From the IMG/VR virus record IMGVR_UViG_3300020401_000049, positions 1 to 33,974 of that record: a DNA stretch of 33,974 bases; one strand, 5' to 3'. The position numbers were made by a program, and so were the translations under genes. The notes beneath the pieces are model-generated. The model saw only the letters and a program-made list of their open reading frames with translations. It made no database searches and had not been told where the DNA came from. Positions 4,971-23,539 of this stretch are shown here, piece by piece. The stretch is from a virus. Each line of letters opens with the position of its first letter. The stretch's first letter is position 1.

Positions 4971-5212
4971 TGTATATCTGCACTTATAAATTACCTGGCA
5001 GAGAAAAAACTTTCCAGGGAGAAACTGTACCAGCTGCACATAAAATGTTTTTAAAAGATTATGCTGAGGCTGCGGGTCAAGTTAAAAAAGTTAAGATTGA
5101 AAAAACTACAGATCCATTATTTTTAATGGTAGTAAGTTATCCAACTTACAGAGATTTTTTTGCTAATCCTAAATTTACTTATGAAACTAAATTAATGGGA
5201 GGCGATATATGA
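4970..5212 (+). CDS. Hypothetical 80-aa protein upstream of integrase
   Basis: The start shares a base with the previous stop (TAATG), and AAGGAG precedes it by nine bases. The stop overlaps the integrase start (ATGA), so the three genes are translationally chained. The sequence has short strand-like pieces (YICTYKLPG, KKVKIEK, LFLMVVSY) and no recognised motif. A small partner of the integrase is possible from context alone. Confidence 0.6.
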   Translation: MYICTYKLPGREKTFQGETVPAAHKMFLKDYAEAAGQVKKVKIEKTTDPLFLMVVSYPTYRDFFANPKFTYETKLMGGDI

Positions 5213-6393
5213 AAGTTTGGATTGAGAAAAAAGCTAGAGCTGGAGGCAAGAAGTACATTGTCTTTGTTGAAGTAGATGGCAAGAAAAAAGTTAAAGCTAC
5301 TTATGAGCTGAACCAAAAGAGACAAGCTAATATCTATGCTGATAGTTTAAGAAATATGGAGAGCCATATAGCTATGCCAGCTGAGATCACTTTTGATGCT
5401 GCTATAGCTGCCTACAAAGAAGATGTCTTAAAGGATGAATTAAAGACTTATGAGAGCAGATTGCTAATTTGTGGGATAATAAACCACCATATCCAGCCGC
5501 ACATTAGCAAAAAGCTCTTATCCGACTATACCCTCTATGATTTTAACGATAGCTATATACCAGCTCTTATAAGCTCCTACAGCATGAGAGTTAAGAATTT
5601 ACCTGGTGGTAAGTCAGAAGTTGTAAGATCTAACAAAAAGCTAGGTAAGAAAGTTATCAAAGAGAGTGTGGCTCAGTTTAAATGTTTTGTTAAATATTGT
5701 TTAAGCAGAAAATGGATCTTAGATCCTACAATCTTAAACTTTAAATTTAATAAAAACTTTTTCCAGGATGAGAATACTAAAGCAAAATGGATGCCTAAGT
5801 ATCAAGACATTGTAAAGATTGTTAATAGTGAAGATAACCTATTTAACAGAGTTTTATTTCATACAGCAGCAGAAACTGGCATGAGATTAAATGAGCTGCT
5901 AGGTTTAACTTACTCAGACCTGGATCTAAAATCTAATCCAGCTCTTATCTATGCTAATCATAGCTTAGATAAATGGAATAACTTTAGAGAAAACTTCTTA
6001 AAAACTGCTAGCTCAAAAAGAAAAGTAGAGATCTCTAAGAGCTTATCTTTGTTGCTACAAAATCTTATGAAACAACAGCTGCCTAAAAAACATGGTAGAT
6101 ATAGAATGGTATTTGGTATTACTAAGGCAGCAGCTGCTAAAAGAATTAAAAGAGCTGCTAAAAGAAATGGCATTACATGGGAAAACGGAATGTCGCCTTT
6201 TAGAAAATTTAGTTTTAGTTTTTTAAAAGATCAACAAGCTCTAACTGATAAGCAGATTATGCAAAGATTTGGCTGGTCTAATATGAATACTCCTAACAAA
6301 TGGTATTACAAAGATCTTGATATTAATAAACAAGAAAGAGCTACAGCCATTAATAATATGCTTAATATAGAGCATCATTTCAAAGCTAATTAA
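5209..6393 (+). CDS. int: Tyrosine site-specific integrase
   Basis: The 394-aa protein has the size and layout of phage integrases: an N-terminal arm-binding part (KKARAGGKKYIVFVEVDGKK), a core-binding helical region (about 60-190) and a C-terminal catalytic domain. Catalytic residues seen are R226 in ETGMRLNELLGL, Lys at 270 or 272 in the SSKRK turn, R332 in MSPFR, W356 in RFGWSN (the His/Trp position) and the nucleophile Tyr at 366 or 367 in KWYYKD. The first His of the usual HxxR box is Ser329 here. It catalyses recombination of attP with a host site. The tRNA-Pro 384 bases downstream is the obvious candidate target. Confidence 0.92.
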   Translation: MKVWIEKKARAGGKKYIVFVEVDGKKKVKATYELNQKRQANIYADSLRNMESHIAMPAEITFDAAIAAYKEDVLKDELKTYESRLLICGIINHHIQPHISKKLLSDYTLYDFNDSYIPALISSYSMRVKNLPGGKSEVVRSNKKLGKKVIKESVAQFKCFVKYCLSRKWILDPTILNFKFNKNFFQDENTKAKWMPKYQDIVKIVNSEDNLFNRVLFHTAAETGMRLNELLGLTYSDLDLKSNPALIYANHSLDKWNNFRENFLKTASSKRKVEISKSLSLLLQNLMKQQLPKKHGRYRMVFGITKAAAAKRIKRAAKRNGITWENGMSPFRKFSFSFLKDQQALTDKQIMQRFGWSNMNTPNKWYYKDLDINKQERATAINNMLNIEHHFKAN

Positions 6394-6575
6394 TGGAAGA
6401 ACCCATGAGCTATCTCCTATTCAAATTGAATTTGGAGATGGCTTATGTATCTACTTTTGAAAGAGATAAATGGGTCCAAGAACAATACGATAAATATTTA
6501 AAAAATTTTTATATCACGCAAAAAAAAAGGGAGGGTTTAATTAACCCTCCGAAAAACCCTCCGATACTTAAATAA
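6393..6575 (+). CDS. Hypothetical 60-aa protein after integrase
   Basis: The ATG shares a base with the integrase stop (TAATG). The product (MEEPMSYLLFKLNLEMAYVS...) is helical with a basic end. Two points weaken it: an imperfect inverted repeat (AGCTATCTCC and GGAGATGGCT, around 6407-6442) lies inside the frame, and its last 15 codons coincide with a leftward terminator. Real but unrecognised, or a chance frame in the 3' control region. Confidence 0.4.
   Translation: MEEPMSYLLFKLNLEMAYVSTFERDKWVQEQYDKYLKNFYITQKKREGLINPPKNPPILK
6520..6550 (-). terminator. Rho-independent terminator of the leftward late block
   Basis: The perfect inverted repeat GGAGGGTT (6530-6537) and AACCCTCC (6543-6550) has a 5-base loop. 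Read leftward, it is followed by a C and a run of eight or nine T (complement of the A run 6520-6528), a textbook terminator. Read rightward there is no T run. It would stop transcripts coming from the lysis genes before they enter the integrase from behind. Confidence 0.75.
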
Positions 6576-6776
6576 GCTAGCAATCCCAATAGTTGTCGAT
6601 AGTATTCGAACCTATCTTCCAAATCTCCAAGTTGTTAAGTAAATACACCACTTCATCTTTAAGTTGAAGAGAAAAGATTGACATAAATGCCTATAAAAAA
6701 GCTACATTCTGTAAGGCATATATCAGATTGATATATCGTTTATCCTCTGATAATCCTCCCATGTTTTAATAAAAGT
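6576..6776. promoter_or_regulatory. Gene-free region between integrase module and tRNA-Pro, possible attP arm region
   Basis: These 201 bp hold no convincing gene. A perfect palindrome, ATATATCA-GAT-TGATATAT, lies at 6718-6736. TTGATA (6728-6733) and GATAAT (6749-6754), 15 bp apart, could be a promoter for the tRNA. A T-arm-like element, GATAG-tattcgaac-CTATC, lies near 6618-6636. Together with the adjacent integrase these are what one would expect around an attachment site, with arm-type binding sites and regulatory repeats. No experiment or second copy supports an exact core. Confidence 0.35.
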
Positions 6777-6853
6777 CTGGGTGTAGCGTAGCCTGGTAAC
6801 GCACTAGCTTTGGGAGCTAGGGATCGTTGGTTCAAATCCAACCACCCAGACCA
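6777..6853 (+). tRNA. tRNA-Pro (anticodon UGG), CCA encoded
   Basis: A complete cloverleaf of 77 nt: acceptor CTGGGTG with CACCCAG (C1-G72, typical of bacterial tRNA-Pro), D stem GCGT/ACGC, anticodon stem CTAGC/GCTAG with loop TTTGGGA (TGG at 6811-6813), variable GGATC, T stem GTTGG/CCAAC with loop TTCAAAT, discriminator A and encoded CCA. All stems pair perfectly. It may be a working phage tRNA, since CCA dominates proline codons here. It may also be the attP copy of a host tRNA gene used for integration, as integrases often target tRNA genes. Confidence 0.95.
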
Positions 6854-7838: not shown

Positions 7839-8206
7839 TACTTTTTCTTTCGATCAAGTACAGACTTTGTAATTCTGGTTCCGAAACTCGCAGAAAATAC
7901 GATGATTACCAAGTACCATACGCTATCTGGCAGCTCATTGATTATAGATACCCACTCTCTAAAGTTCTCTCTAGTAGATGGAAACCAACCCGTTGTAAGC
8001 ATACCAATTAGCCAGAGCATTAAGATCTCATCCTTGTATGATTGATCCTGGCTTTTAATTCTAGTTATATCTACATCTTTAGCTGCCTCTATTTCAGCAG
8101 CTCTAATTACTTTTGTCTTTTCAGCTTTGTGTTTAAAATGATCTGTTGCTTTATTAATAACCATTTTAGTTAATGGGTTATTAAATATTTTTAATAAGTG
8201 TATCAC
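7838..8206 (-). CDS. Holin-like membrane protein
   Basis: The 122-aa product has an N-terminal charged helical part (about 1-58) and two hydrophobic segments (EILMLWLIGMLTTGWF, about 61-76; WYLVIIVFSASFGTRI, about 97-112), then a Lys/Arg end (DRKKK). The pattern resembles the GTA-type three-helix holin family. It overlaps the lysozyme stop by four bases, the classic holin/endolysin neighbourhood. It would permeabilise the inner membrane so that the signal-less lysozyme can reach peptidoglycan. Confidence 0.7.
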   Translation of the reverse strand: MIHLLKIFNNPLTKMVINKATDHFKHKAEKTKVIRAAEIEAAKDVDITRIKSQDQSYKDEILMLWLIGMLTTGWFPSTRENFREWVSIINELPDSVWYLVIIVFSASFGTRITKSVLDRKKK

Positions 8207-8640
8207 GCTGCGCAGCTCCTCATTATGCCAGCTAGCTCCTCACATCTTTTAGTTGTTTGTTTATGCCAGGCACTATCTATCATCTCATCTGCAGCTTTGT
8301 TATAGTCTGCAGCTCTAATACCCTCCCACATTTTCTTGAATTTACTTACTCGAGGTTTTCCCAACTGGAAACACATCTCGCAAATCAATCCTCTAATCGT
8401 AGTAAATTTTTCGTTGGGATCTATATCTGCAAGCAGCTCATCAGCTGAGCTTAAAGCAATTTCAAAATCTTTATCAAACACAGCATCAAGCTCTTCTTTA
8501 GAATACTCAACACCCTCAACAAAGTTATCGGTATCCAAAACCAAATGACCATAACCAATTGTAGCAAAACCCAGGCTGTCGGAATAGATAGTATTCCTAA
8601 ACCCCTCATGTTCTTTAATTCTTTGTTTAATGTCTTCCAT
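8203..8640 (-). CDS. T4-type lysozyme (endolysin, GH24)
   Basis: The 145-aa enzyme shows the T4 lysozyme active-site signature near the N-terminus: E12 in KEHEGF, D21 in YSDSLG and T27 in TIGYGH, spaced as E11/D20/T26 of T4. The rest is helical as in the family, and the length is close to the usual 150-165. It hydrolyses the MurNAc-GlcNAc bond of peptidoglycan. There is no signal peptide, so export depends on the adjacent holin-like protein. Confidence 0.93.
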   Translation of the reverse strand: MEDIKQRIKEHEGFRNTIYSDSLGFATIGYGHLVLDTDNFVEGVEYSKEELDAVFDKDFEIALSSADELLADIDPNEKFTTIRGLICEMCFQLGKPRVSKFKKMWEGIRAADYNKAADEMIDSAWHKQTTKRCEELAGIMRSCAA

Positions 8641-9354: not shown

Positions 9355-10911
9355 TTAGTTAAATCTTCCTTTGCCGCTATTATATAAATAACTTATTTGA
9401 GTATCTGATAAGTTTGCATTAAAAGCTCTCCAGCCACCAGTCCAACCCTCCCAAGCATAAGTATTATATCCATGACTTGTGGCATACTGTGGAGCATAAG
9501 TCATAAATCCAGCATTAGAGCTTGTAGTACTCGTGCTGTTAGATTGTCCAGTTGTATGAAATAAACTTCCACCATGACTTACTGTTAGTGTCATATTTTG
9601 ATTTGAGCTGTACAATGGAGATTGTGTCCATCTAAAAGCATAAAACCTCCAAAGTTTTATATCAAAGTCAGATGTTCCAGTCATAGCATTAGCATTTGTA
9701 GAAGTTCCACCATGATGCACCGAACCAAAATAAGCACTTGATGGAGTTTGAACCTGGTTAAAATCTAACCATTCTGATTGATGAGAATAAAAATCTACTA
9801 CTCTAGCATAAGGATTATTGTAAGACCCAGATAATGTGTCATCGCTAGAGCTATCACATCTTCCCCACATAGTTAAAGTCCAACCACCAGATCCAGGAAT
9901 TGTATTTACAATGTTTCCCCAATCTCCACCTCTTGAGCTATCGTTTAATTTAATTAATTTTGTTCCTGTCCAATCTGTTCCCGCAACAGTATCTATTGTA
10001 GATGCAGTTGTGACTTCTCGAAGATCATGATTATTATTAAGAGTACCTAACCAGTTTGAAGTAGCCTCATAATTCATAGCTGAAAATTCTGAAACACCGC
10101 TTAAAGGATTGTCTTTAATAATTATTGAAAATGATCTATCTACATTTTTAGAATTTGCTGTTGCTCTTAAATCAAAATTTGATGTGGTGTCTCCAGATAC
10201 AGTTGGAGCTGTTCCAGAAATAACACCAGTTGAGCTGTCTATTGTTAATCCACTTGGAAAAGAACCAGAAGATTTTGAATAAGCTATAGTATCTCCATCA
10301 ACATCCGCAGCTGCAACTGTTATGCTAACACTTTCTCCCTCGTAAATTTCTCCTCCGATTTGACCAGCAGATGTTGTCCAAGTAGGATTATTATCTACGC
10401 TTATTAATCCAACAGATGAAATTCCTGTCACTCCAGATGCTGAGGTAAATTTAATTTTATAAGGCTCTTGAGCATTTAAAAAACTTGATTTAGGAGCAAC
10501 TGCCGTCACTTGTGTTTGAGAATTATAAGTAGTTGTTGTAGCATTAAATTCAGTTGATGACCCAATAAAAGATATTGTTCCACCAGATGCAAAATTTGAT
10601 CCAGTAATTACTAAGGTTTGATCTCCACCCGCTGCGCTATCTACTTCTCCATCATCTACACTTGAAATTGTTGGTGTTGGCTCTAGTGTTGAAAATGAAC
10701 CAGTAGCATTTCTTCCCTCAAAATATCCAGTATCGGTATTGTATCTCCATTGACCAGTTATGCTGCCTCGTTGTGCATTTGTACCAGCTGCAACTTTCGT
10801 ACCCTCAGTACCAGTATCAGATATATTTTCAAAAGAAACATCCAGGTTTGAACCAGCAATTTTTCCATTTGATGTACTTAGCAAACTGCTAAGATCCCTA
10901 GCTTTAGTCAT
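9355..10911 (-). CDS. Multi-domain tail adhesin with Ig-like and lectin-like parts
   Basis: The 518-aa protein starts with a short virion-attachment-like segment (MTKARDLSSLLSTSNGKIAG). An IPT/TIG-like domain follows (about 80-170: TISSVDDGEVDSAAGGDQTL...), then a cadherin/He_PIG-type Ig-like repeat (about 173-268, with FPSGLTIDSSTGVISGTAP). The C-terminal portion, rich in Trp, Gly and Ser (GGWTLTMWGRCDSSSDDTLS ... GGWRAFNANLSDTQI), is like LamG/concanavalin sugar-binding domains. It probably binds host surface glycans. AGGAGG precedes the ATG. Confidence 0.7.
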   Translation of the reverse strand: MTKARDLSSLLSTSNGKIAGSNLDVSFENISDTGTEGTKVAAGTNAQRGSITGQWRYNTDTGYFEGRNATGSFSTLEPTPTISSVDDGEVDSAAGGDQTLVITGSNFASGGTISFIGSSTEFNATTTTYNSQTQVTAVAPKSSFLNAQEPYKIKFTSASGVTGISSVGLISVDNNPTWTTSAGQIGGEIYEGESVSITVAAADVDGDTIAYSKSSGSFPSGLTIDSSTGVISGTAPTVSGDTTSNFDLRATANSKNVDRSFSIIIKDNPLSGVSEFSAMNYEATSNWLGTLNNNHDLREVTTASTIDTVAGTDWTGTKLIKLNDSSRGGDWGNIVNTIPGSGGWTLTMWGRCDSSSDDTLSGSYNNPYARVVDFYSHQSEWLDFNQVQTPSSAYFGSVHHGGTSTNANAMTGTSDFDIKLWRFYAFRWTQSPLYSSNQNMTLTVSHGGSLFHTTGQSNSTSTTSSNAGFMTYAPQYATSHGYNTYAWEGWTGGWRAFNANLSDTQISYLYNSGKGRFN

Positions 10912-14793: not shown

Positions 14794-17376
14794 TTATTCA
14801 GAAATTTGTGGTGTATCTGATGGCATATTTTCGCCTGGATACCACCAATAATCTCTGTTTTCTTTAGTTTGGTATCTTTTAATTACATTGTTGTTTTTTT
14901 TATGAAATTTAGGATCAATTAAGTTCTGCAGAGTATCTACTATAATCCTTTCCCATGCTGCTCTAAGATACCATATTGAGCTGCCTGGGGTATATTTTTT
15001 AATAAAATTAGAAAACTCTCTGCCTAAAGCTGGCTCTTTACCACCAGGCATATATCTAAATGTTTCATCTATTAGACCAAAAACATCTTTAGCAAAAGCT
15101 ACTGGTAATCCAAGTAAAGCATCTGTAATATCTGTTCCATAGTTTTCTCCCTCTGCCTCTTGATAAACTAGATCTCCAAAGATACCTAATCCACCACCAC
15201 CAATTAATCTCGCTAACCAGTATTGAAACATTTGTGTTTTATCTAAAGTGCTTAAATTTATTATATCTCTTCCTTTTAATACTTCTCTCATTTCATGTGA
15301 GTAAGCATTCATCAAAGTTGTACCAATTAAAAATGGTACTAAATAACCAGCTTTACCTTTTAAACCAGTTTCTCTTAAACCTCTCATTATATGAGTAAAA
15401 CCAATTGCAATTGCAAAATTTTTAAACATCAATCCAGATGCTAATATTTCTCCAGCAAATGTTCCTGGTTTATTTTTACCCATAACAGCAACTCTGCCTC
15501 TAATAGCAGCTGTAGGTATAGCATGATCTGTTTCTGTAAAAATCATTTCCATAATTCTGCCATGCAATCTATTAGCCTCTGATGGATCTAAGTCAGATCT
15601 TTTTAATAAATCTTCTGGCTTAAAAAACATAGCCTCGCCAGGTTTCATATTTGGATCATCAATAGCAGCATCATATAATTTAGTTTTTCTTATGACATCC
15701 CAATCTCCCTCTCTTATTCCATAAGTTTCTAAAGTTTGTGTAAGAGATCTTCCGTAAGATTGTAATTTTCCTTTTTGTGTTAAAGCATTTAATTCATCCC
15801 AAGATTTATTAAAATTATCTCCTAAGAAACCCATAAACTCCATACCAAATGCCCAACGACCAGCTTGTGTTAAATGTGATAAACCAGATGCTCTAAGTGT
15901 CATATCTGATAACATCTTTGCAAGTATTGGTGCATCGGTATCTATAAAATATCTATTAGCAGCTGATGCAATAGTTGACCAATGCTCAGCAACTAAGCCA
16001 GCTCTAATAGCTGCTTTAGACCAACTTTTGTCAGTTTTTAAACCATCCTTAATTAATTTTAATGCTTTTCTATTTGCTTTATATGCTGGTAATCCAAGAA
16101 ATTTAGATGTCATTCTTGAAAAGAAAAAGTCTGATTGTGCAAGTAATGTTGCAGATCCAATAACAGAAGATGTTAGGATATGTCTTAAACCAGCAAATCC
16201 CATAGCCCACCACTTATCTACTCCACTATTTAATCTGCCAGCATGAGATAAGTATAAATTTTCTAATCCCTCTATTTTAGATCTAACACTTTCTCTTTCT
16301 TTAATTGGTAAGTCTTTTGTATTAATTCTTATAAGATCAACTAAATATCTAAACCCAGCGTTAGGATTTGGTCCCAAGGCTCTCATCATAGCTGTATCTC
16401 TACTGATGCTTTCTAAATGCTGGTATATTGTAGATATAACATCTTCATCTCCAAACTTAGATTGATAAGCCATATAATCATCTGCGCTTTTAAAAACTAA
16501 AAATCTATGATCTAACCTGGCGTTAGCTGTCATACCAGATGCGTTGCTCATAGTTCTTGATGTAGATCTTGATCCAGCCACTAATTGACTTACTCCCTCA
16601 GTTCTTATTGCATCATAAGTTCTAGGTAATTCTAAAACTAATTCCTCTCTAGTAAATGATCTACCCGTTTTATTATTGATCATTCTTTCAAGATCTAATT
16701 TAGGTAAAATATATTCAATCCATTCTTCTTGTGTAGCTCGACCAACTTTAACTGCATTGTGTGGCTGTGGTAAATAATTACCTTTTATCTTAGCAACATT
16801 ACCACCAAATTGATTATGTCTAGTTCTTGCAAGCTCTATAGATTTATTAATTGCTGCAGCAAATTCTTTTGCTAAAGGATTTGCAGTAGATCCAGGTTCT
16901 AGTATTTCTTTAATAATTAATGGAGTAGTCATTTTTTGAAATTTATTTCTTCTGCCAAAATAACTTGTTCTATATTTTTCCATAAATTGAGCTAAGGGTG
17001 CGTGTACTAAACCAAGCTCAGTTCTTTTCATATTAGTAATTGATAAAATTTGATTGCCAGCATCTTGATCAAATATAGATCTTATACCCTCAATAATATC
17101 TTTATTACCTTTTACATCTCTATAATTTTCTGCAGTAAATTTATTCTGCGCTTGTACTCTAGCTTGATATAATGCGTTTCTTTTAGATCTTATTCTTTTC
17201 TCTAATTGTACATCCCAAGTCTCTTTAGCTGCAGCTCTTTCAGCCTCAAAGTCATTATAACCTTGAGCCTTAAATTTATCGTATTGTTTTTGAAATTCTA
17301 TTCTGTGAGCATCTGCTGCATCTGATGTCATCTCTCCATCTCTAAGCGCATTGCTAATACATTTTAAATAACTCAT
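14794..17376 (-). CDS. Large internal virion protein (T7 gp16-position)
   Basis: The 860-aa protein lies directly upstream of the tail fibre, where T7-like phages encode gp16. Helical charged N-terminus (SDAADAHRIEFQKQYDKFKA), then amphipathic or hydrophobic segments such as GFAGLRHILTSSVIGSATLL (about 395-414), ILASGLMFKNFAIAIGFTHI and VPFLIGTTLMNA. These could insert into the host envelope during ejection. I see no transglycosylase motif. It overlaps the ParB/RelSpo gene by four bases. Likely a component of the DNA-ejection channel. Confidence 0.75.
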   Translation of the reverse strand: MSYLKCISNALRDGEMTSDAADAHRIEFQKQYDKFKAQGYNDFEAERAAAKETWDVQLEKRIRSKRNALYQARVQAQNKFTAENYRDVKGNKDIIEGIRSIFDQDAGNQILSITNMKRTELGLVHAPLAQFMEKYRTSYFGRRNKFQKMTTPLIIKEILEPGSTANPLAKEFAAAINKSIELARTRHNQFGGNVAKIKGNYLPQPHNAVKVGRATQEEWIEYILPKLDLERMINNKTGRSFTREELVLELPRTYDAIRTEGVSQLVAGSRSTSRTMSNASGMTANARLDHRFLVFKSADDYMAYQSKFGDEDVISTIYQHLESISRDTAMMRALGPNPNAGFRYLVDLIRINTKDLPIKERESVRSKIEGLENLYLSHAGRLNSGVDKWWAMGFAGLRHILTSSVIGSATLLAQSDFFFSRMTSKFLGLPAYKANRKALKLIKDGLKTDKSWSKAAIRAGLVAEHWSTIASAANRYFIDTDAPILAKMLSDMTLRASGLSHLTQAGRWAFGMEFMGFLGDNFNKSWDELNALTQKGKLQSYGRSLTQTLETYGIREGDWDVIRKTKLYDAAIDDPNMKPGEAMFFKPEDLLKRSDLDPSEANRLHGRIMEMIFTETDHAIPTAAIRGRVAVMGKNKPGTFAGEILASGLMFKNFAIAIGFTHIMRGLRETGLKGKAGYLVPFLIGTTLMNAYSHEMREVLKGRDIINLSTLDKTQMFQYWLARLIGGGGLGIFGDLVYQEAEGENYGTDITDALLGLPVAFAKDVFGLIDETFRYMPGGKEPALGREFSNFIKKYTPGSSIWYLRAAWERIIVDTLQNLIDPKFHKKNNNVIKRYQTKENRDYWWYPGENMPSDTPQISE

Positions 17377-20300
17377 TTACAATCCTTTAATCTTTCTAAG
17401 GCTTGAGCTGCCTTAGCATCATCTTCCATAAACTCTCTCATAGGTTTGATAATATCTACTTCTTCTCCAGTAGCATCTATTCTAGTCCCTACATGAATAT
17501 TAGTATCAATTAATTCTTCTGAGCCTAAACCTTGTTTTTCTAAAGCTGTGAACCAGGCATCGTCTAGTTCCATTCTTATATTTTCTTTTGCTTTTTCAAA
17601 TGCAGCTAAACCTTTTGCAGTTTTAAATTGATCTGCTTTCATTTTGTATAGCTTATGAGATCTTGTCAAAATTTTGGCAGTAGATTTTAATCTAACTTGT
17701 AGTTCAACTGTCATGCCATCTTTAGTTAAAAGCTGCATGTGTATAGCTCTATAGCCAGATCCTCTTCCACCATCAGTTTTTAAAAAATCGTCAAACTCTA
17801 TTGCTTTTACAGAATTTTTAATATCTTGAGCTACAGCTCTAACCTGGTCAATAGTATCAAGATCTATTCTAGCTCTTAATAAATCAGATACTTCCTCAAT
17901 ATTACGAGTTTTTAGCTTTTCTGCCAAACTTGCGTCATCTTTTAGACTTATATCTATATTGGCTTTATGCTTTTCTTTAAATTTATTAAGAAAACTTAAA
18001 TATCCATCATAGTTCTTTTTGGCTAAAGCCTTTAATTCGTTGATGTCATTAACGCTATGATATATAATTCTTTTACTTATGGCACTTGTAGAACCAATAA
18101 CTTTATTATCAGATCCTCGTAAAGACGGAGGAGATGCTGTAGCGTCTGCAAAAACAGTAGATGGTGGAGTAGCTTTTGTTCGTTGGGATCCAGCTGCTAA
18201 ATCTTGGGAAATAGATAATTCCTTAACTGCTGGAGATGTGCTTACACTTCCATTACTGCCAACTTCATCTTTTATTTCTTTAGAAATACCCTCGCCTAAT
18301 ATTGCATCTGCAATTGATGGATCTTCTGAGGCTTGACCAACTTTAGGCTCACTAAATAATTTATTTGTTGTTAAGTCTTCTTCAAATTTCGGAGGTATCG
18401 TTGATGTCTCAATTTCAGTTTTGTTAGCTCCAAATGACTTGCTAACATCGCTCCCTCTAAAATCTCCTTTCGCAGCTGCGTCATCGATAGCTTGCTGGAA
18501 GAATTTTTCTGCGTCTGATCTTTTTCCATCTTTGAGGAGTTGAGCTGCTTTTGTGAGTTTGTCTGAGAGTTCTGCCCCAGCTCTAGTTGCGATCTGTTCA
18601 AATCTTTCTCCAACTTGCTCATATATTAATCTTTGCTCCTCATTGTTAAGTTTATTTAATTTATTTCCCGCTTTTTGTAAAGTTGTATCATTTTCAACAA
18701 TAGTCTTAAAAGCAGCACTTCTCTTGTTAATATTCTTTTTTGCCCAGTTTAATAACTGAGATCTCTCTACTAACAGAGTTTCTGCAAAAAAATCTGTACC
18801 AAATAATGTGTCTTGTTTAGTGACAGTTTTAGGAAGTGTATTTGTTAATCTTAATGTTTGCTCTAATTCTGCAACAGTTGAAAATTTTTTATCTTTTAAA
18901 ATTTTAATTATATTTGCGTGTAAAGATTTATCTTCAATAATCTCTCCAACTTTAGCACCCAGGTTTTCAAGTTGTCTATTATTAGATACCATCCCCCAAG
19001 CATCATCGCTTAATTCTGTTAAGCCAAATGTGTTTCTAACTAAATTAGTTCTAGGTGGTAAAAATTTTTTTATTTGTTCAGCATCAACACCATATCTGGA
19101 TCTTAGTATTTTAGCAGCATCACTAGCTGAACCAGTATTATTCATAAGATTAACCATTAAACCTTTAATCATGGCAGCCTCTGGTGTAATACCATCAGCC
19201 TCTCTTATTGTATAAGCTAGTAAATCTATTTTTTTTCCTTGAGCTGATAATCTTTTAGCCAATCCTAATCTTTGGTGTCCATCAACAATTGCTTTTTTTC
19301 CATTCCTATATTCAAAAACCATTATTGTTCCAGCTGCAACATTATCCCATTCTTTAACCTCAGCTAGTTTATTAGATACACCTCTTTTGTCTCCGTCAGT
19401 TTTATATTGAAAATTTACTGGATCAAATTCTATTTCTTCTGGTTTATAAATTTGATTATTAGCTGTTATCTCATTTATACTTTTAGATTTTATTGCTGCC
19501 TCAATAGGTTTTATTTCTTTTTTAATATCATTTAAAACTATTGTCTGAGCTGCATTATGATTTTCTGTATCTAGCTGCGATGTAGCTTTTGTTTCTTCAA
19601 AAGGATTTTCTGGCTGTTTAACTTTAGACAACTCTTCTGGATTTTCTATTTTAAGAGCTTTAGATATTTTATCTATTTCTGCATCGCTAGATTTATTTAA
19701 TGCTTTTCTTAATGTTCCAGTTGCATTAGGTACACCTTTAATCAAACCTTGTATTAATCCACCTAAAAGAAATGACCCAGCTCCAACAGTTAATGTATTT
19801 AAAACTCCAAGATTAACTGTCTTACCAAATAATTCTACTTCTGTTTTTAATCCTACTTCTTTTCTAAAACCTTGAGCTTTTATTTGAATAGGTATCTCAA
19901 CAGCTGTACCTATTAATCCCTCTACCCAGGCTACTCTCCAGGCAGCTGCTAGAGCTGTTGATGGCACTTTATACATAGCTCCAATTGGTAAAGTACCAAG
20001 AATTAAAGGATCTGTGACTAACGCAGAAAAAGAACCAGCAAAGTTTCCAAAGGTTCCCATACCAGTAGATCTGTCTGCTACATCAGCTTGTTTATCATGT
20101 ATCCCCTGGATCCTAACTCCCATGGTATTAAAAAACTGTTCTTGATTTTCATAACCCATGTTAGTCAATTCTTCTGCAATATCTGGATTTGCAGCTTTTA
20201 ACTCTTCTATTCTTTGCCAAAAAGTTTCTATGTTTTCTGTTTCTGATGGTGGCGGTTCATCTAATACTCTAGGATCTTCTGGTCCCAAAGGCACATCTTC

Positions 20301-20531
20301 ATTATTATAAATAGGATTGCTAAATTGTGAGTATCCTTTTTTATTAAGATGATCGACTAATAAACTATATTCTTTTTCTACAGAGTTTCTTTCACTATCA
20401 AATCTATCACTAGAAAACATAGCATCATAGCTAGCTCTAAAATTTTCTAAATATCCCGTTCTATTTCCACTTGCCCAGGATGTTTCTCCTAAAGAGTTTG
20501 TGGCTTTTTTCTCATCAAAGACAAAAGACAT
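17373..20531 (-). CDS. Internal virion protein with ParB-like and RelA/SpoT-like domains
   Basis: This 1052-aa protein lies among the ejection-protein genes. Hydrophobic segments occupy about 160-265. A ParB-like domain (about 385-500) has VDGHQRLGLAKRL (D417, R421), then GSASDAAKILRSRYG. A low-complexity linker (about 690-815) leads to a RelA/SpoT-type domain (about 820-975). In it D883 (VSDLLRARIDL), Y927 in GYRAIHMQL and E943 in MTVELQVRL match the metal-binding Asp and Glu and the guanine-stacking Tyr of (p)ppGpp synthetases. It resembles the polyvalent proteins that phages carry into the host. Both domain matches are by eye; activity is unproven. Confidence 0.75.
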   Translation of the reverse strand: MSFVFDEKKATNSLGETSWASGNRTGYLENFRASYDAMFSSDRFDSERNSVEKEYSLLVDHLNKKGYSQFSNPIYNNEDVPLGPEDPRVLDEPPPSETENIETFWQRIEELKAANPDIAEELTNMGYENQEQFFNTMGVRIQGIHDKQADVADRSTGMGTFGNFAGSFSALVTDPLILGTLPIGAMYKVPSTALAAAWRVAWVEGLIGTAVEIPIQIKAQGFRKEVGLKTEVELFGKTVNLGVLNTLTVGAGSFLLGGLIQGLIKGVPNATGTLRKALNKSSDAEIDKISKALKIENPEELSKVKQPENPFEETKATSQLDTENHNAAQTIVLNDIKKEIKPIEAAIKSKSINEITANNQIYKPEEIEFDPVNFQYKTDGDKRGVSNKLAEVKEWDNVAAGTIMVFEYRNGKKAIVDGHQRLGLAKRLSAQGKKIDLLAYTIREADGITPEAAMIKGLMVNLMNNTGSASDAAKILRSRYGVDAEQIKKFLPPRTNLVRNTFGLTELSDDAWGMVSNNRQLENLGAKVGEIIEDKSLHANIIKILKDKKFSTVAELEQTLRLTNTLPKTVTKQDTLFGTDFFAETLLVERSQLLNWAKKNINKRSAAFKTIVENDTTLQKAGNKLNKLNNEEQRLIYEQVGERFEQIATRAGAELSDKLTKAAQLLKDGKRSDAEKFFQQAIDDAAAKGDFRGSDVSKSFGANKTEIETSTIPPKFEEDLTTNKLFSEPKVGQASEDPSIADAILGEGISKEIKDEVGSNGSVSTSPAVKELSISQDLAAGSQRTKATPPSTVFADATASPPSLRGSDNKVIGSTSAISKRIIYHSVNDINELKALAKKNYDGYLSFLNKFKEKHKANIDISLKDDASLAEKLKTRNIEEVSDLLRARIDLDTIDQVRAVAQDIKNSVKAIEFDDFLKTDGGRGSGYRAIHMQLLTKDGMTVELQVRLKSTAKILTRSHKLYKMKADQFKTAKGLAAFEKAKENIRMELDDAWFTALEKQGLGSEELIDTNIHVGTRIDATGEEVDIIKPMREFMEDDAKAAQALERLKDCK

Positions 20532-22633
20532 TATCTACTTTCCCAGTTTGATCTAACTTTATTAAAATCTATTATAAAAAAATTATTACCCTCTTTTGCA
20601 AAATTACCATCGATTGCATATCTAGGTTCTGCATTAGCTTTAGATGGATGATCTTGCATAGCTACTTTAAATTTACCATAACCCACACTAACTAAATATG
20701 GATCTCCACCCTCAAAAATTTGTATATTTCTAATTTTACCATCAGCATCTTTACCTACTGCATCTCCAGGTAAGAATTTACCATCAACTGTAGTTCCGCT
20801 AGCTTTAGCTAACATAGCTGGATTTTCTTTTAACCAATCTACAAAATCATCAAACTCATCATTTTTTAACCACATAGGAACATGAACAGCGTTATTATTA
20901 TAATCTGCAACACCGCCATATTTACCATTAGCACCTAAAGACATATTCATTGCTTTGTCATAAAGTTTTTTATCAAATTGACCCGTCTTATATTTTGGAG
21001 AATTAAAATACATAGCAGCATAAATATTATCTGCAGTACCAACTATGTTATTAAATGTTTCTATATTTTCTGGAAATATATTTTTATATTTAGCAATCGT
21101 TAATCTTTTATCTGTATCGCTAACTTTAATATCTATGTTAGCTTGTTTATTTAATAAATAACCCTCAATAGCTAAATCTATTGCTTTATTAGGCATATTC
21201 TCAGATATAATACTTAATCCTCCTATATGAGCTAAGAATTGATCTTTTTCCTGGAGCTGCGCAAATACATCTGGAGCTGCATTACCAAAACCCTCTACTA
21301 AAATTTGAGACATAAATTTTATTTGTGTTGCGTTTTCCATTTTAGCTAACGCAGCTGTTATTTGTGTAGCCTCATTTTCTGATAAAAATTTACTTTCTAT
21401 TCCGTAAATAGCTCCAATACTTTCTGCTTGTGATTTTCTTTTAATCATAAGATCTTTAAAAGTTTCGAAGTTTTCTTGTGGATTTGATGCAAACTCATTA
21501 AAATCAATTGTTTCAATATTAAATGTACCTCTTTTAGATACAGCCATTATTGAATCTTTTTCTAAATCTGTTTTTAATTTTGCTAAATAATTTTCTGCAG
21601 TTTTTAATTGATCAAATAATGCAGTTGAAGTTCCATCTTTATTAGCAGCAATCTTAGCTCTAGTTTCTGTTAAAAAATCCTCAATTTGTAAAGGTGTCAT
21701 TAAATTTAAAGATTGTACTAAAGCAACTTTAGCTTTTATCTTTTGAGCTTTTATAATTATTTCTGGTTTATTTAATGCCTCTCCAGTTTTCATATAATCG
21801 TTAAGTGTAGTCATGTTAGGAAGAATGCCATTGTCAGCCATATTATCCATTTTAGTTAGCTCAGAATTAATTAATTTTGTAGATGTTGAGCTTGATGTTT
21901 TAAAATGTGTTTCTAGTTTTTCTATATCTTCTACACTTAATCTATTATCTTTTTTAGCAACTGATAAAGCACCCTCTCTTTGATCTATAGGTACATTTTT
22001 ATAACCATAAAAAGCTATATCTCTTTTAACTTTTTTTCTTACTTCATCAGATTTTTCGCCAAACAAATCTGTAAATGCTTTACTTTCTAATAAAACTTTC
22101 AATTCATCTTGTGCAGCATTTCTAGTGTTGACATCTTGTGTGTAAAGTATTTTTTTTGTTAATACATTTATATAATCTAATTTTTGAGATCTATTATTTT
22201 CAATTAAATTTGCAGTAGTCTTAGTTCTTATTTCGTTGACATCTTCTAATTCTTGTTTCTTTAACCAATTATTAAAATATTTTTTTGCAAATATTCCATT
22301 AAATTCTTTTGTTGTATCTTTAACTTTTTTAACTTCATTACTAAAATATTTAATACCCTCATCTGGATCATTCATATTTGATGCAATAAGTTTATGTGCA
22401 GATAAACCTTGCTCTGTTTCTGATCCGTTCATTACAGTTTTTTTCTTTTCAAACAAATCGTTTTCAGATTTTATTTGTTGGTGTTTTATGTAAAGATTTT
22501 CTCCAGATTTCAAAAAACCTTTCATAGCTTTACCAACAGAACCAGCCTCAGATAAACTAATTTGTCTTCTGTCGATTACATTTGAATTATCTGTAGTAGG
22601 TGTAAGTTGTGATTTGTATAATTTAATTGACAT
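20531..22633 (-). CDS. Internal virion protein (T7 gp15-position)
   Basis: The 700-aa protein is overwhelmingly helical and charged (KLYKSQLTPTTDNSNVIDRR ... IKYFSNEVKKVKDTTKEFNG), lacks membrane helices, and ends with a short beta-like region (YLVSVGYGKFKVAM). It is placed after the gp14-like gene, as T7 gp15 is. Such proteins are packed in the capsid and form part of the periplasmic ejection tunnel. TAATG joins it to the next gene. The family call rests on position, size and composition. Confidence 0.7.
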   Translation of the reverse strand: MSIKLYKSQLTPTTDNSNVIDRRQISLSEAGSVGKAMKGFLKSGENLYIKHQQIKSENDLFEKKKTVMNGSETEQGLSAHKLIASNMNDPDEGIKYFSNEVKKVKDTTKEFNGIFAKKYFNNWLKKQELEDVNEIRTKTTANLIENNRSQKLDYINVLTKKILYTQDVNTRNAAQDELKVLLESKAFTDLFGEKSDEVRKKVKRDIAFYGYKNVPIDQREGALSVAKKDNRLSVEDIEKLETHFKTSSSTSTKLINSELTKMDNMADNGILPNMTTLNDYMKTGEALNKPEIIIKAQKIKAKVALVQSLNLMTPLQIEDFLTETRAKIAANKDGTSTALFDQLKTAENYLAKLKTDLEKDSIMAVSKRGTFNIETIDFNEFASNPQENFETFKDLMIKRKSQAESIGAIYGIESKFLSENEATQITAALAKMENATQIKFMSQILVEGFGNAAPDVFAQLQEKDQFLAHIGGLSIISENMPNKAIDLAIEGYLLNKQANIDIKVSDTDKRLTIAKYKNIFPENIETFNNIVGTADNIYAAMYFNSPKYKTGQFDKKLYDKAMNMSLGANGKYGGVADYNNNAVHVPMWLKNDEFDDFVDWLKENPAMLAKASGTTVDGKFLPGDAVGKDADGKIRNIQIFEGGDPYLVSVGYGKFKVAMQDHPSKANAEPRYAIDGNFAKEGNNFFIIDFNKVRSNWESR

Positions 22634-22643
22634 ATTTTATCTC

Positions 22644-23090
22644 CTATGCTGCCATTACTTTTGTTCCAAGATCTAATAAACTTGAGCCAGCTGCATAGTA
22701 AGATGCTTTTTTAGCAACTTTACCTCTCCATCTAGCTAGATCTGCATCAGCTCTTTTTTGTATTGCCTCATTTAATGCTGTATCTCTTGCATTCTCAGCA
22801 TTGTAATCCATTATATCTCTGTCCGTTTGTAATTCTAATTCGTTAGCATAAAGAGTATCAATAACTGTACCAGATAAATCAGCACCACTAGCTAAATAAG
22901 CTACAGTAGTTTTACCCTGGATCTGTTCAATTGTTTTATCAAATTTAGGAAGTGAATAATCATTATGAACAGACATAATCTGTTCAGCTTTTTGCTCATC
23001 TATTTTTGCATTACGCTCTAAAATTTTAGCATTGTAATTAGCTGCTGCTTGTTGTGATTTACCCGCAAATATATCTCCAAAAAAACTCAT
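22644..23090 (-). CDS. Internal virion protein (T7 gp14-position)
   Basis: The 148-aa protein starts MSFFGDIFAGKSQQAAANYN, followed by long Ala/Glu/Lys helices and a mildly hydrophobic end (AGSSLLDLGTKVM). Small, Ala-rich, helical proteins of this kind directly precede gp15-like genes in T7-like phages and are thought to form the outer-membrane part of the ejection channel. It overlaps the acetyltransferase-like gene by four bases. Confidence 0.65.
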   Translation of the reverse strand: MSFFGDIFAGKSQQAAANYNAKILERNAKIDEQKAEQIMSVHNDYSLPKFDKTIEQIQGKTTVAYLASGADLSGTVIDTLYANELELQTDRDIMDYNAENARDTALNEAIQKRADADLARWRGKVAKKASYYAAGSSLLDLGTKVMAA

Positions 23091-23539
23091 TTTTCTATCC
23101 TCGCAAATCTAATAAAGTCTGCACCATCGGGACCATAACTTTTCATAACTCCCTCTGGATTTAGACCTAGCCATTTAGCAAATCGGATTGCCATATCACA
23201 ATCTGCTTTGACACTTGTTTGTAATCTTTTTATATTATTATTTTTTATAAGCATCTCAGTTCTTTTTTTTATATGCTTTGCGCAAAAAATTGGATACTTA
23301 TAAATATCTTTTGTAGCCAAGACCCACCCCTCGGCAACGCCATCCCAAAGTGTAAATACACCTCCAGCCGCTATGGGTTTGTTGTTGACTAAACCCGTGA
23401 ACGACATACCAACTTCTTTTAAGTAGTAAGCATATTTTTTATGTTCTGGTTTCAACTCTAATAATTTACTATTTAAACCAGTTTCTAAAATTTGTTCAGC
23501 GTGTTTATTTTCAAATGGTACAATAACAACTTTAGACAC
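23087..23539 (-). CDS. GNAT-like internal virion protein
   Basis: The 150-aa protein has the order of a GNAT acetyltransferase-like fold: MSKVVIVPFENKHAEQILE, a central YLKEVGMSFTGLVNNKPIAA strand pair, GGVFTLWDGVAEGW, and the end segment AIRFAKWLGLNPEGVMKSYG. Comparable proteins sit between tail tube B and gp14-like genes in T7-like marine phages, often called internal virion protein A. The acetyl-CoA loop (Q/R-x-x-G-x-G/A) is not evident, so it may be non-enzymatic. It overlaps both neighbours. Confidence 0.65.
   Translation of the reverse strand: MSKVVIVPFENKHAEQILETGLNSKLLELKPEHKKYAYYLKEVGMSFTGLVNNKPIAAGGVFTLWDGVAEGWVLATKDIYKYPIFCAKHIKKRTEMLIKNNNIKRLQTSVKADCDMAIRFAKWLGLNPEGVMKSYGPDGADFIRFARIEK

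What the first reader, a model, noticed from the sequence alone, without database searches (positions are those of the whole stretch)
17373..20531. Ejected virion protein carrying ParB-like and RelA/SpoT-like domains
The 1052-aa protein is encoded among T7-like internal virion proteins, so it is probably packaged and injected. Seen: a DGHQR-type ParB motif (D417, R421) and a C-terminal domain with D883, G926-Y927-R928-xx-H931 and E943, in the order and spacing of RelA/SpoT synthetases. Known: Asp and Glu bind the metal and the Tyr stacks on the acceptor nucleotide. Related toxic small alarmone synthetases make ppGpp, ppApp or pyrophosphorylate tRNA. Inference: the phage injects an alarmone-type enzyme that could halt host translation, alter host transcription or exclude rivals in the first minutes. 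The linker at 690-815 and the terminal position fit a deliverable effector. No hydrolase domain and no adjacent antitoxin gene is obvious.
Basis: partly seen in the sequence, partly recalled or inferred. Interest (0 to 1): 0.85.

Follow-up and report, generated by a model that had tools for sequence, protein, structure and literature searches.

The report
Phage ejection protein with swappable toxin
A marine phage carries, inside a protein that it probably injects into its bacterial host, an intact-looking alarmone-synthetase enzyme; in sister phages the same slot holds other toxin-type enzymes or nothing, which suggests an exchangeable weapon delivered at infection.

Summary
Residues 864-964 of the 1052-aa protein match Pfam RelA_SpoT above its cut-off, and a model of residues 800-1052 matches small alarmone synthetases. 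K864, D883, Y927, R928, H931, E943 and Q945 are invariant in 20 phage versions and selection on the domain is purifying (dN/dS 0.01-0.30). Residues 357-566 fold like ParB/Noc/KorB. The window is an HTVC010P-type (pelagiphage-like) podovirus with an integrase. The gene lies in the ejection-protein block, in the place of epsilon15/phiV10 gp16/gp19. New here: the synthetase is not terminal but sits in a cargo slot between a Ser-rich linker and a conserved 46-aa tail. Among relatives the slot holds RelA/SpoT, divergent RelA-like, Zeta toxin or PBECR1 domains, or nothing; carriers 98-100% identical elsewhere can hold unrelated cargo. No immunity or hydrolase gene was found; the gene overlaps the next one by four bases. 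Best reading: an ejected pyrophosphokinase effector, ppGpp-type or tRNA-directed more likely than ppApp-type. Virion packaging, injection and activity are inferred. The idea is known (polyvalent proteins, MuF toxins); the swap slot on a podoviral ejection protein is a new variant.

The parts
17373..20531 (-). Gene for the 1052-aa putative ejection protein (carrier plus RelA/SpoT cargo)
   Evidence: start overlaps the upstream stop (TAATG) and stop overlaps the downstream start (ATGA)
19467..20531 (-). N-terminal ejection-protein region, residues 1-355, with moderately hydrophobic stretches at 168-186 and 241-267
   Evidence: hydropathy; weak profile match to HTVC024P gp46, annotated 'putative internal virion protein', E=3.9e-5, probability 71%
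19137..19463 (-). ParB/sulfiredoxin-like N domain, residues 357-465, with invariant DGHQR at 417-421
   Evidence: model pLDDT 88; PadC Z 9.4 over 94 residues at 2.6 A; invariant residues in 42 carriers
18834..19136 (-). Helix-turn-helix-like region following the ParB domain, residues 466-566
   Evidence: ParB 6t1f and Noc 7nfu align over model residues 1-211, Z about 9
18462..18833 (-). Helical region, residues 567-690, end of the conserved carrier
18054..18461 (-). Ser-rich linker, residues 691-826; the place where identity between sister carriers stops
17514..18053 (-). RelA/SpoT-type synthetase domain (cargo), residues 827-1006
17940..17942 (-). K864, ATP-site lysine (syn1)
   Evidence: invariant in 20 of 20 modules
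17883..17885 (-). D883, predicted metal-binding aspartate (syn2)
   Evidence: invariant in 20 of 20 modules
17739..17756 (-). GYRAIH 926-931, acceptor-nucleotide motif (syn3)
   Evidence: Y927, R928 and H931 invariant in 20 of 20 modules
17703..17705 (-). E943, predicted catalytic/metal-binding glutamate (syn4, ELQVR)
   Evidence: E943 and Q945 invariant in 20 of 20 modules
17376..17513 (-). Conserved C-terminal tail, residues 1007-1052, present in carriers with any cargo or none
   Evidence: tail profile: window 3.5e-17, SI2 6.3e-12, phiV10 gp19 2e-5, among 664 ORFs; alignment
20531..22633 (-). Upstream neighbour, 700 aa, phrog_992 'head protein' (same place as phiV10 gp18 / epsilon15 gp15)
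22644..23539 (-). Two small internal-virion-protein genes (148 and 150 aa)
   Evidence: PHROGs 418 and 308, both annotated internal virion protein
14794..17376 (-). Downstream neighbour, 860 aa, phrog_684 virion structural protein; homologue of phiV10 gp20

Best explanation
This is a podoviral ejection protein (same genomic place as epsilon15 gp16 / phiV10 gp19) that carries a RelA/SpoT-type pyrophosphokinase in an exchangeable cargo slot. Proposed steps: (1) the protein is packaged in the head with its neighbours (inferred from gene order, tail homology to phiV10 gp19, and literature on ejection proteins); (2) at infection it is ejected ahead of the DNA, the N-terminal region helps form the envelope conduit, and the ParB-like domain contacts entering DNA or nucleotide (inferred); (3) the synthetase folds in the cytoplasm and transfers pyrophosphate from ATP to a 3' hydroxyl (fold and catalytic residues shown, activity inferred); (4) a burst of (p)ppGpp, or pyrophosphorylated tRNA, slows host growth or rival elements in the first minutes (inferred). 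Product order by my judgement: guanosine alarmone, then tRNA CCA end, then (p)ppApp.
For: Pfam RelA_SpoT over the cut-off; small-alarmone-synthetase fold, Z 13.3; nine invariant residues covering the synthetase motifs in 20 modules; dN/dS 0.01-0.30 in the domain; place between phrog_992 and phrog_684 virion proteins and next to two PHROG internal virion proteins; C-terminal tail shared with phiV10 gp19, E=2e-5, the only confident hit outside the ParB carriers among 664 ORFs; cargo swaps in the same slot, with Zeta toxin E 1e-13 to 1e-19 and PBECR1 E 2e-9. Motifs keep the His of syn3 and the Arg of syn4, as in ppGpp enzymes, and differ from the GxN / YH motifs of the (p)ppApp toxins described in PMC12226406.
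Against: No proteomic or biochemical evidence. The model of the synthetase is of moderate confidence (pLDDT 61). The Arg of the usual RxK ATP motif is Ser in the window's clade (it is Arg in L058, L061-L063, L069 and L107). No phage record in the 50,697-record collection was found with this module on this carrier. Homology of the N-terminal region to known internal virion proteins is weak.
Confidence: 0.62

Rival explanations
1. The domain is a tRNA pyrophosphokinase (toxSAS/CapRel-like) that blocks the CCA end and stops translation, rather than an alarmone synthetase.
For: CapRel is among the best structural matches (Z 11.7); the domain is basic (pI 8.9 against 5.7 for the whole protein); Zeta and PBECR1 in the same slot are also toxin families.
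Against: Ordinary alarmone synthetases score slightly higher (Z 13); a complete translation stop would also harm the phage unless reversed; no antitoxin or reversing enzyme found in the window.
Confidence: 0.25
2. The enzyme is not an injected effector: it works inside the producing cell late in infection, for example raising ppGpp before lysis, and is only encoded in a structural gene.
For: The carrier lies in the late gene block; no virion proteomics exists.
Against: Fusion to a conserved carrier plus a conserved tail, in relatives with any cargo, makes little sense for an enzyme needed only in the producing cell; polyvalent and MuF precedents point to packaging.
Confidence: 0.15
3. The domain is a catalytically dead or structural remnant, or acts as a decoy that binds host alarmone.
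For: Ser replaces the Arg of the RxK motif in this clade; divergent RelA-like cargo elsewhere has GYFDRK in place of GYRxxH.
Against: K864, D883, Y927, R928, H931, E943 and Q945 are all invariant and selection is purifying.
Confidence: 0.08
4. The cargo mosaicism comes from chimeric metagenome assemblies.
For: Most loci are metagenomic contigs; L011 is a short contig.
Against: The same junctions recur in contigs of different metagenomes (L094 and L096 against L102; L119 and L101 against L099), cargo differs among carriers spread over the whole tree with at least 19 changes, and cultured-strain contigs show it too (Aureimonas L137/L159 with PBECR1, L157 without).
Confidence: 0.03

Closest known systems
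Polyvalent proteins of phages (Iyer et al. 2017, PMC5512222), in particular Helicobacter prophage proteins that combine DdrB-like ParB, PBECR and RelA/SpoT domains
   Same: Large multidomain protein among late virion genes; ParB-like plus RelA/SpoT in one chain; strong domain mosaicism; predicted injection; the authors already proposed an alarmone-like response
   Different: Here a podoviral ejection protein with one defined cargo slot between a linker and a conserved tail, one cargo at a time, no metallopeptidase found; I found no mention there of pelagiphage-like viruses; the ParB part has an HTH-like second domain
[quoted passage not shown] PMC12226406, PMC5576092)
   Same: Phage head-associated carrier with an exchangeable RelA-type enzyme domain
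   Different: No MuF domain; no iapK/aph1 immunity genes; syn motifs of the guanosine type, not RYT/GxN/YH; a conserved tail follows the cargo; podoviral ejection-protein gene
Ejection proteins of epsilon15/phiV10 (gp16/gp19) and T7 gp16 (review PMC8954989)
   Same: Same place in the gene order; C-terminal tail shared with phiV10 gp19; ejection proteins are known to swap enzyme domains such as lysozyme
   Different: phiV10 gp19 (600 aa) has no DGHQR or GYRxxH motif in its sequence; the enzyme domain named in that review acts on the cell wall, not on nucleotides
Small alarmone synthetases (RelQ/SAS1, RelP/SAS2) and toxSAS/CapRel
   Same: Fold and catalytic motifs
   Different: Embedded in a 1052-aa virion-type protein, not free-standing; no antitoxin

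Membership tests
RelA/SpoT synthetase domain (PF04607) | Match above the curated family cut-off | tested here: met
   32.1 bits against 27, E=1.5e-7, residues 864-964
RelA/SpoT synthetase domain (PF04607) | Catalytic Asp, GYxxxH and ExQ motifs present and conserved | tested here: met
   D883, Y927, R928, H931, E943, Q945 invariant in 20 modules
RelA/SpoT synthetase domain (PF04607) | RxK ATP-binding motif | tested here: inconclusive
   K864 invariant; the Arg is Ser in the window's clade, Arg in L058, L061-L063, L069, L107
RelA/SpoT synthetase domain (PF04607) | Synthetase fold | tested here: met
   SAS1 5dec and SAS2 6fgk Z 13.3, 167-168 residues; model pLDDT 61
RelA/SpoT synthetase domain (PF04607) | Pyrophosphokinase activity | not testable with these tools
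   needs purified protein
Toxin-antitoxin small alarmone synthetase (toxSAS) | Free-standing toxin gene with an adjacent antitoxin gene | tested here: not met
   1052-aa fusion; the next gene starts inside the stop codon (ATGA overlap) and encodes a virion protein, in the window and the nine loci of its clade checked, and overlaps similarly in other carriers
MuF polymorphic toxin (Apk2) | MuF N-terminal domain | tested here: not met
   no MuF match in the Pfam scan of the whole protein at E up to 1
MuF polymorphic toxin (Apk2) | Downstream immunity genes | tested here: not met
   downstream gene is phrog_684 virion protein; no hydrolase among ten other window ORFs scanned
MuF polymorphic toxin (Apk2) | ppApp-type syn motifs (GxN in syn3, YH in syn4) | tested here: not met
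   AIH/GIH in syn3 and VR/IR in syn4
Phage polyvalent protein | Large chain combining several conflict-type domains from the described set | tested here: met
   ParB-like plus RelA/SpoT here; Zeta or PBECR1 in relatives; viral structure hits include proteins named polyvalent
Phage polyvalent protein | Encoded among late virion genes | tested here: met
Phage polyvalent protein | Transferred into the host on infection | not testable with these tools
   needs proteomics or a translocation assay
Epsilon15/T7-type ejection protein | Place in the ejection-protein gene block | tested here: met
   between phrog_992 and phrog_684 homologues, as phiV10 gp19
Epsilon15/T7-type ejection protein | Sequence homology to a known ejection protein | tested here: inconclusive
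   tail profile hits phiV10 gp19 at E=2e-5; N-terminal region matches HTVC024P gp46 at E=3.9e-5, probability 71%, but not phiV10 gp19
ParB/Srx superfamily | ParB N-domain fold followed by HTH domain | tested here: met
   6t1f 182 residues at 4.3 A, Z 9.1; 7nfu 193 residues at 4.7 A, Z 8.8; PadC N domain 94 residues at 2.6 A, Z 9.4
ParB/Srx superfamily | CTPase or nuclease activity | not testable with these tools
   DGHQR invariant in 42 carriers; activity not known

The most novel reading that the evidence does not exclude
Short-tailed phages run a polymorphic effector system built on an ejection protein: a constant carrier (envelope conduit region, ParB/HTH clamp, linker) and a constant 46-aa tail hold one interchangeable enzyme (alarmone or tRNA pyrophosphokinase, Zeta kinase, PBECR nuclease), swapped by recombination in the arms, delivered with the genome and without a dedicated immunity gene.
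Probability: 0.5. Interest if true: 0.78.

Novelty: new variant of a known kind. Interest (0 to 1): 0.64.

Why it matters
It gives a concrete, testable case that podoviral ejection proteins, usually seen as DNA conduits, also deliver cytoplasmic enzymes. The conserved arms give a way to find further phage effectors by looking at what fills the slot. It also places alarmone-type enzymes in predicted virion proteins of a marine phage group related to pelagiphages, whose effect on SAR11-like hosts in the first minutes of infection is unknown.

Tried and rejected
T7 membership in the strict sense: the order and families are closer to epsilon15/phiV10 and HTVC010P-type phages. MuF toxin: no MuF domain, no immunity genes. 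Adjacent antitoxin or hydrolase: none found. Idea that the tail is conserved only because it overlaps the ribosome-binding site of the next gene: rejected as the sole cause, since about 45 residues are conserved at the protein level in very diverse carriers. First genome-contig scan with the full-length alignment found nothing; the second, with the ParB core, found relatives mainly in Alphaproteobacteria but no close host match. PADLOC scan of the cargo: nothing relevant. Integrase against phage records: no match. RelA module in plasmids: no match; L107 module in phage records: no match. N-terminal profile against phiV10 gp19: no match. L091 was first labelled 'no cargo' but lacks the tail and was removed from the tree. 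Paper searches for alarmone synthetases on ejection proteins or ppGpp in pelagiphages gave no report of this fusion by title and abstract; the papers found were not read in full.
Full report
Observation. The open reading frame at 17373-20531 lies on the minus strand and encodes 1052 residues. Pfam assigns RelA_SpoT to residues 864-964 with 32.1 bits against a cut-off of 27 (E=1.5e-7). A model of residues 800-1052 (pLDDT 61) matches small alarmone synthetases first in a search of all solved structures (E 2e-6); the second-look aligner gives Z 13.3 to SAS1 and SAS2, 12.0 to the T6SS effector Tas1 and 11.7 to CapRel; most rows cover model residues 28-207, that is residues 827-1006 of the protein.

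Conservation. Seventeen viral loci were found with the protein itself and more with profiles. In 20 canonical modules, the most distant found only by profile (L079, L106 and L107 at E about 1e-12 to 1e-16), nine positions are invariant: K864, D883, Y927, R928, H931, Q933, G939, E943 and Q945. These cover the ATP-binding lysine, the metal-binding Asp and Glu and the acceptor-stacking Tyr known for RelA/SpoT enzymes (general knowledge). dN/dS in the domain against nine close relatives is 0.01-0.30.

The carrier. Residues 357-678 were modelled with 42 sequences (pLDDT 88); residues 357-566 match ParB, Noc and KorB across both the nucleotide-binding N domain and the helix-turn-helix domain; viral matches include proteins named polyvalent. 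The neighbours are, on one side, two small internal virion proteins and a phrog_992 head protein, and on the other a phrog_684 virion protein homologous to phiV10 gp20. The gene thus stands where phiV10 has gp19 (epsilon15 gp16), in the group of podoviral ejection proteins (review PMC8954989). The major capsid protein is 60-65% identical to those of HTVC010P-type pelagiphages; HTVC024P has in this place a 418-aa protein annotated 'putative internal virion protein', and the carrier's N-terminal profile matches it weakly (E=3.9e-5, probability 71%). An integrase, a repressor-like gene and a tRNA-Pro gene suggest a temperate phage. The host was not determined.

The cargo slot. Orthologues with the same N-terminal region and ParB core come with different C-terminal modules. 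Four first-found carriers hold a Zeta toxin domain (Pfam E 1.9e-13 to 8.9e-19); others hold nothing but linker and tail (L031/L032/L037, L035, L043, L047). In a survey of 118 distinct carriers, profile searches found 19 canonical RelA and 33 Zeta modules; one group has PBECR1 (E 2e-9); most of the rest with long C-termini hold divergent RelA-like domains with GYFDRK in place of GYRxxH. On a tree of 66 carriers built from the ParB core, cargo type changes at least 19 times. Carriers that are 98-100% identical over residues 1-700 can hold unrelated cargo and then resume at 97% identity in the tail: L096 (RelA-like) against L102 (Zeta); L101 and L119 against L099 show similar breaks. Within the window's own clade, L011 has 92-100% identity to L005 over most of the carrier (one 50-residue block at 70%), 48-74% in the synthetase and 86-95% at the end. 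The synonymous distance of the window to L004/L005 also drops from about 0.3 in the carrier to 0.10-0.16 in linker and cargo, another sign of recombination inside the gene.

The tail. The last about 46 residues are conserved in carriers with any cargo or none. A profile of 59 tails, run against 664 ORFs of five phage sequences, finds the window protein, SI2 and phiV10 gp19 (E=2e-5) and nothing else of note. The synthetase is therefore inserted upstream of a constant C-terminal element, not simply appended. In the window and in the close relatives checked the stop codon overlaps the next start (ATGA), and other carriers overlap the next gene similarly, so there is no room for an immunity gene directly behind the cargo. 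No hydrolase was found among ten other window ORFs scanned.

Mechanism. Shown: fold, complete catalytic residues, purifying selection, gene context, modular exchange. Inferred: packaging, ejection, folding in the cytoplasm, activity and effect. On product: the (p)ppApp toxins of MuF proteins differ from ppGpp enzymes at syn2, syn3 and syn4 (PMC12226406); this domain keeps the His of syn3 and the Arg of syn4, so a guanosine alarmone or tRNA product seems more likely than ppApp. This is a weak argument, since in that paper motif changes alone did not convert specificity.

Known and new. Injection of RelA/SpoT domains in polyvalent proteins, including ParB plus RelA/SpoT in Helicobacter prophages, was proposed in 2017 (PMC5512222); Zeta-like kinases were noted there in MuF and conjugative-element proteins. 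MuF toxins with RelA-type domains are biochemically characterised (PMC12226406). I found no report of such cargo on podoviral ejection proteins with a defined swap slot and constant tail (the library is limited to open-licence papers). I therefore rate it a new variant of a known kind.

Limits. Nearly all relatives are metagenomic contigs; no phage record in the collection was found with the RelA module on this carrier. The synthetase model is of moderate confidence. Duplicate contigs occur among the loci, and counts refer to rows after removing identical C-termini; near-identical rows remain among the 20 modules.

Noticed in passing
window 5209-6853: Integrase gene (5209-6393) followed by a complete tRNA-Pro(TGG) gene at 6777-6853; possibly the attachment site of a temperate pelagiphage-like virus. 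The integrase has no match in the phage collection.
   Followed up: partly
L009 (1563-4937) and L041 (6429-9983): Both carriers, otherwise distant and with different cargo, have a similar insertion of about 60 residues inside the ParB-like domain just before DGHQR.
   Followed up: no
L119:8952-10235, L154:8799-10142: Carriers with a shared cargo type that Pfam does not name (GWRIIxFDLRMPNGQLVEWYLP); may be a very divergent nucleotidyltransferase.
   Followed up: partly
L094, L096, L097, L100, L101, L128, L134, L142-L145: Divergent RelA-like cargo, mostly with GYFDRK or similar in place of GYRxxH and with the ExQ motif mostly kept; matches PHROG 37685 in some. Possibly a separate synthetase-like family with another product.
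   Followed up: partly
window 17373-20531 against L004/L005 and L001/L003: N-terminal and C-terminal halves of the gene have different nearest relatives by synonymous distance, a sign of recombination within the gene.
   Followed up: partly
L034 (Ruegeria phage 45A6) 9805-21540 and L036 (Prochlorococcus phage P-SCSP1g) 10621-18309: Giant proteins of 3912 and 2563 aa bear the same ParB-like core, so the core also occurs in much larger proteins.
   Followed up: no
window 8203-8640 and 9355-10911: Phage lysozyme gene, and a 518-aa protein with an Ig-like (He_PIG) domain downstream of the tail-fibre genes.
   Followed up: no
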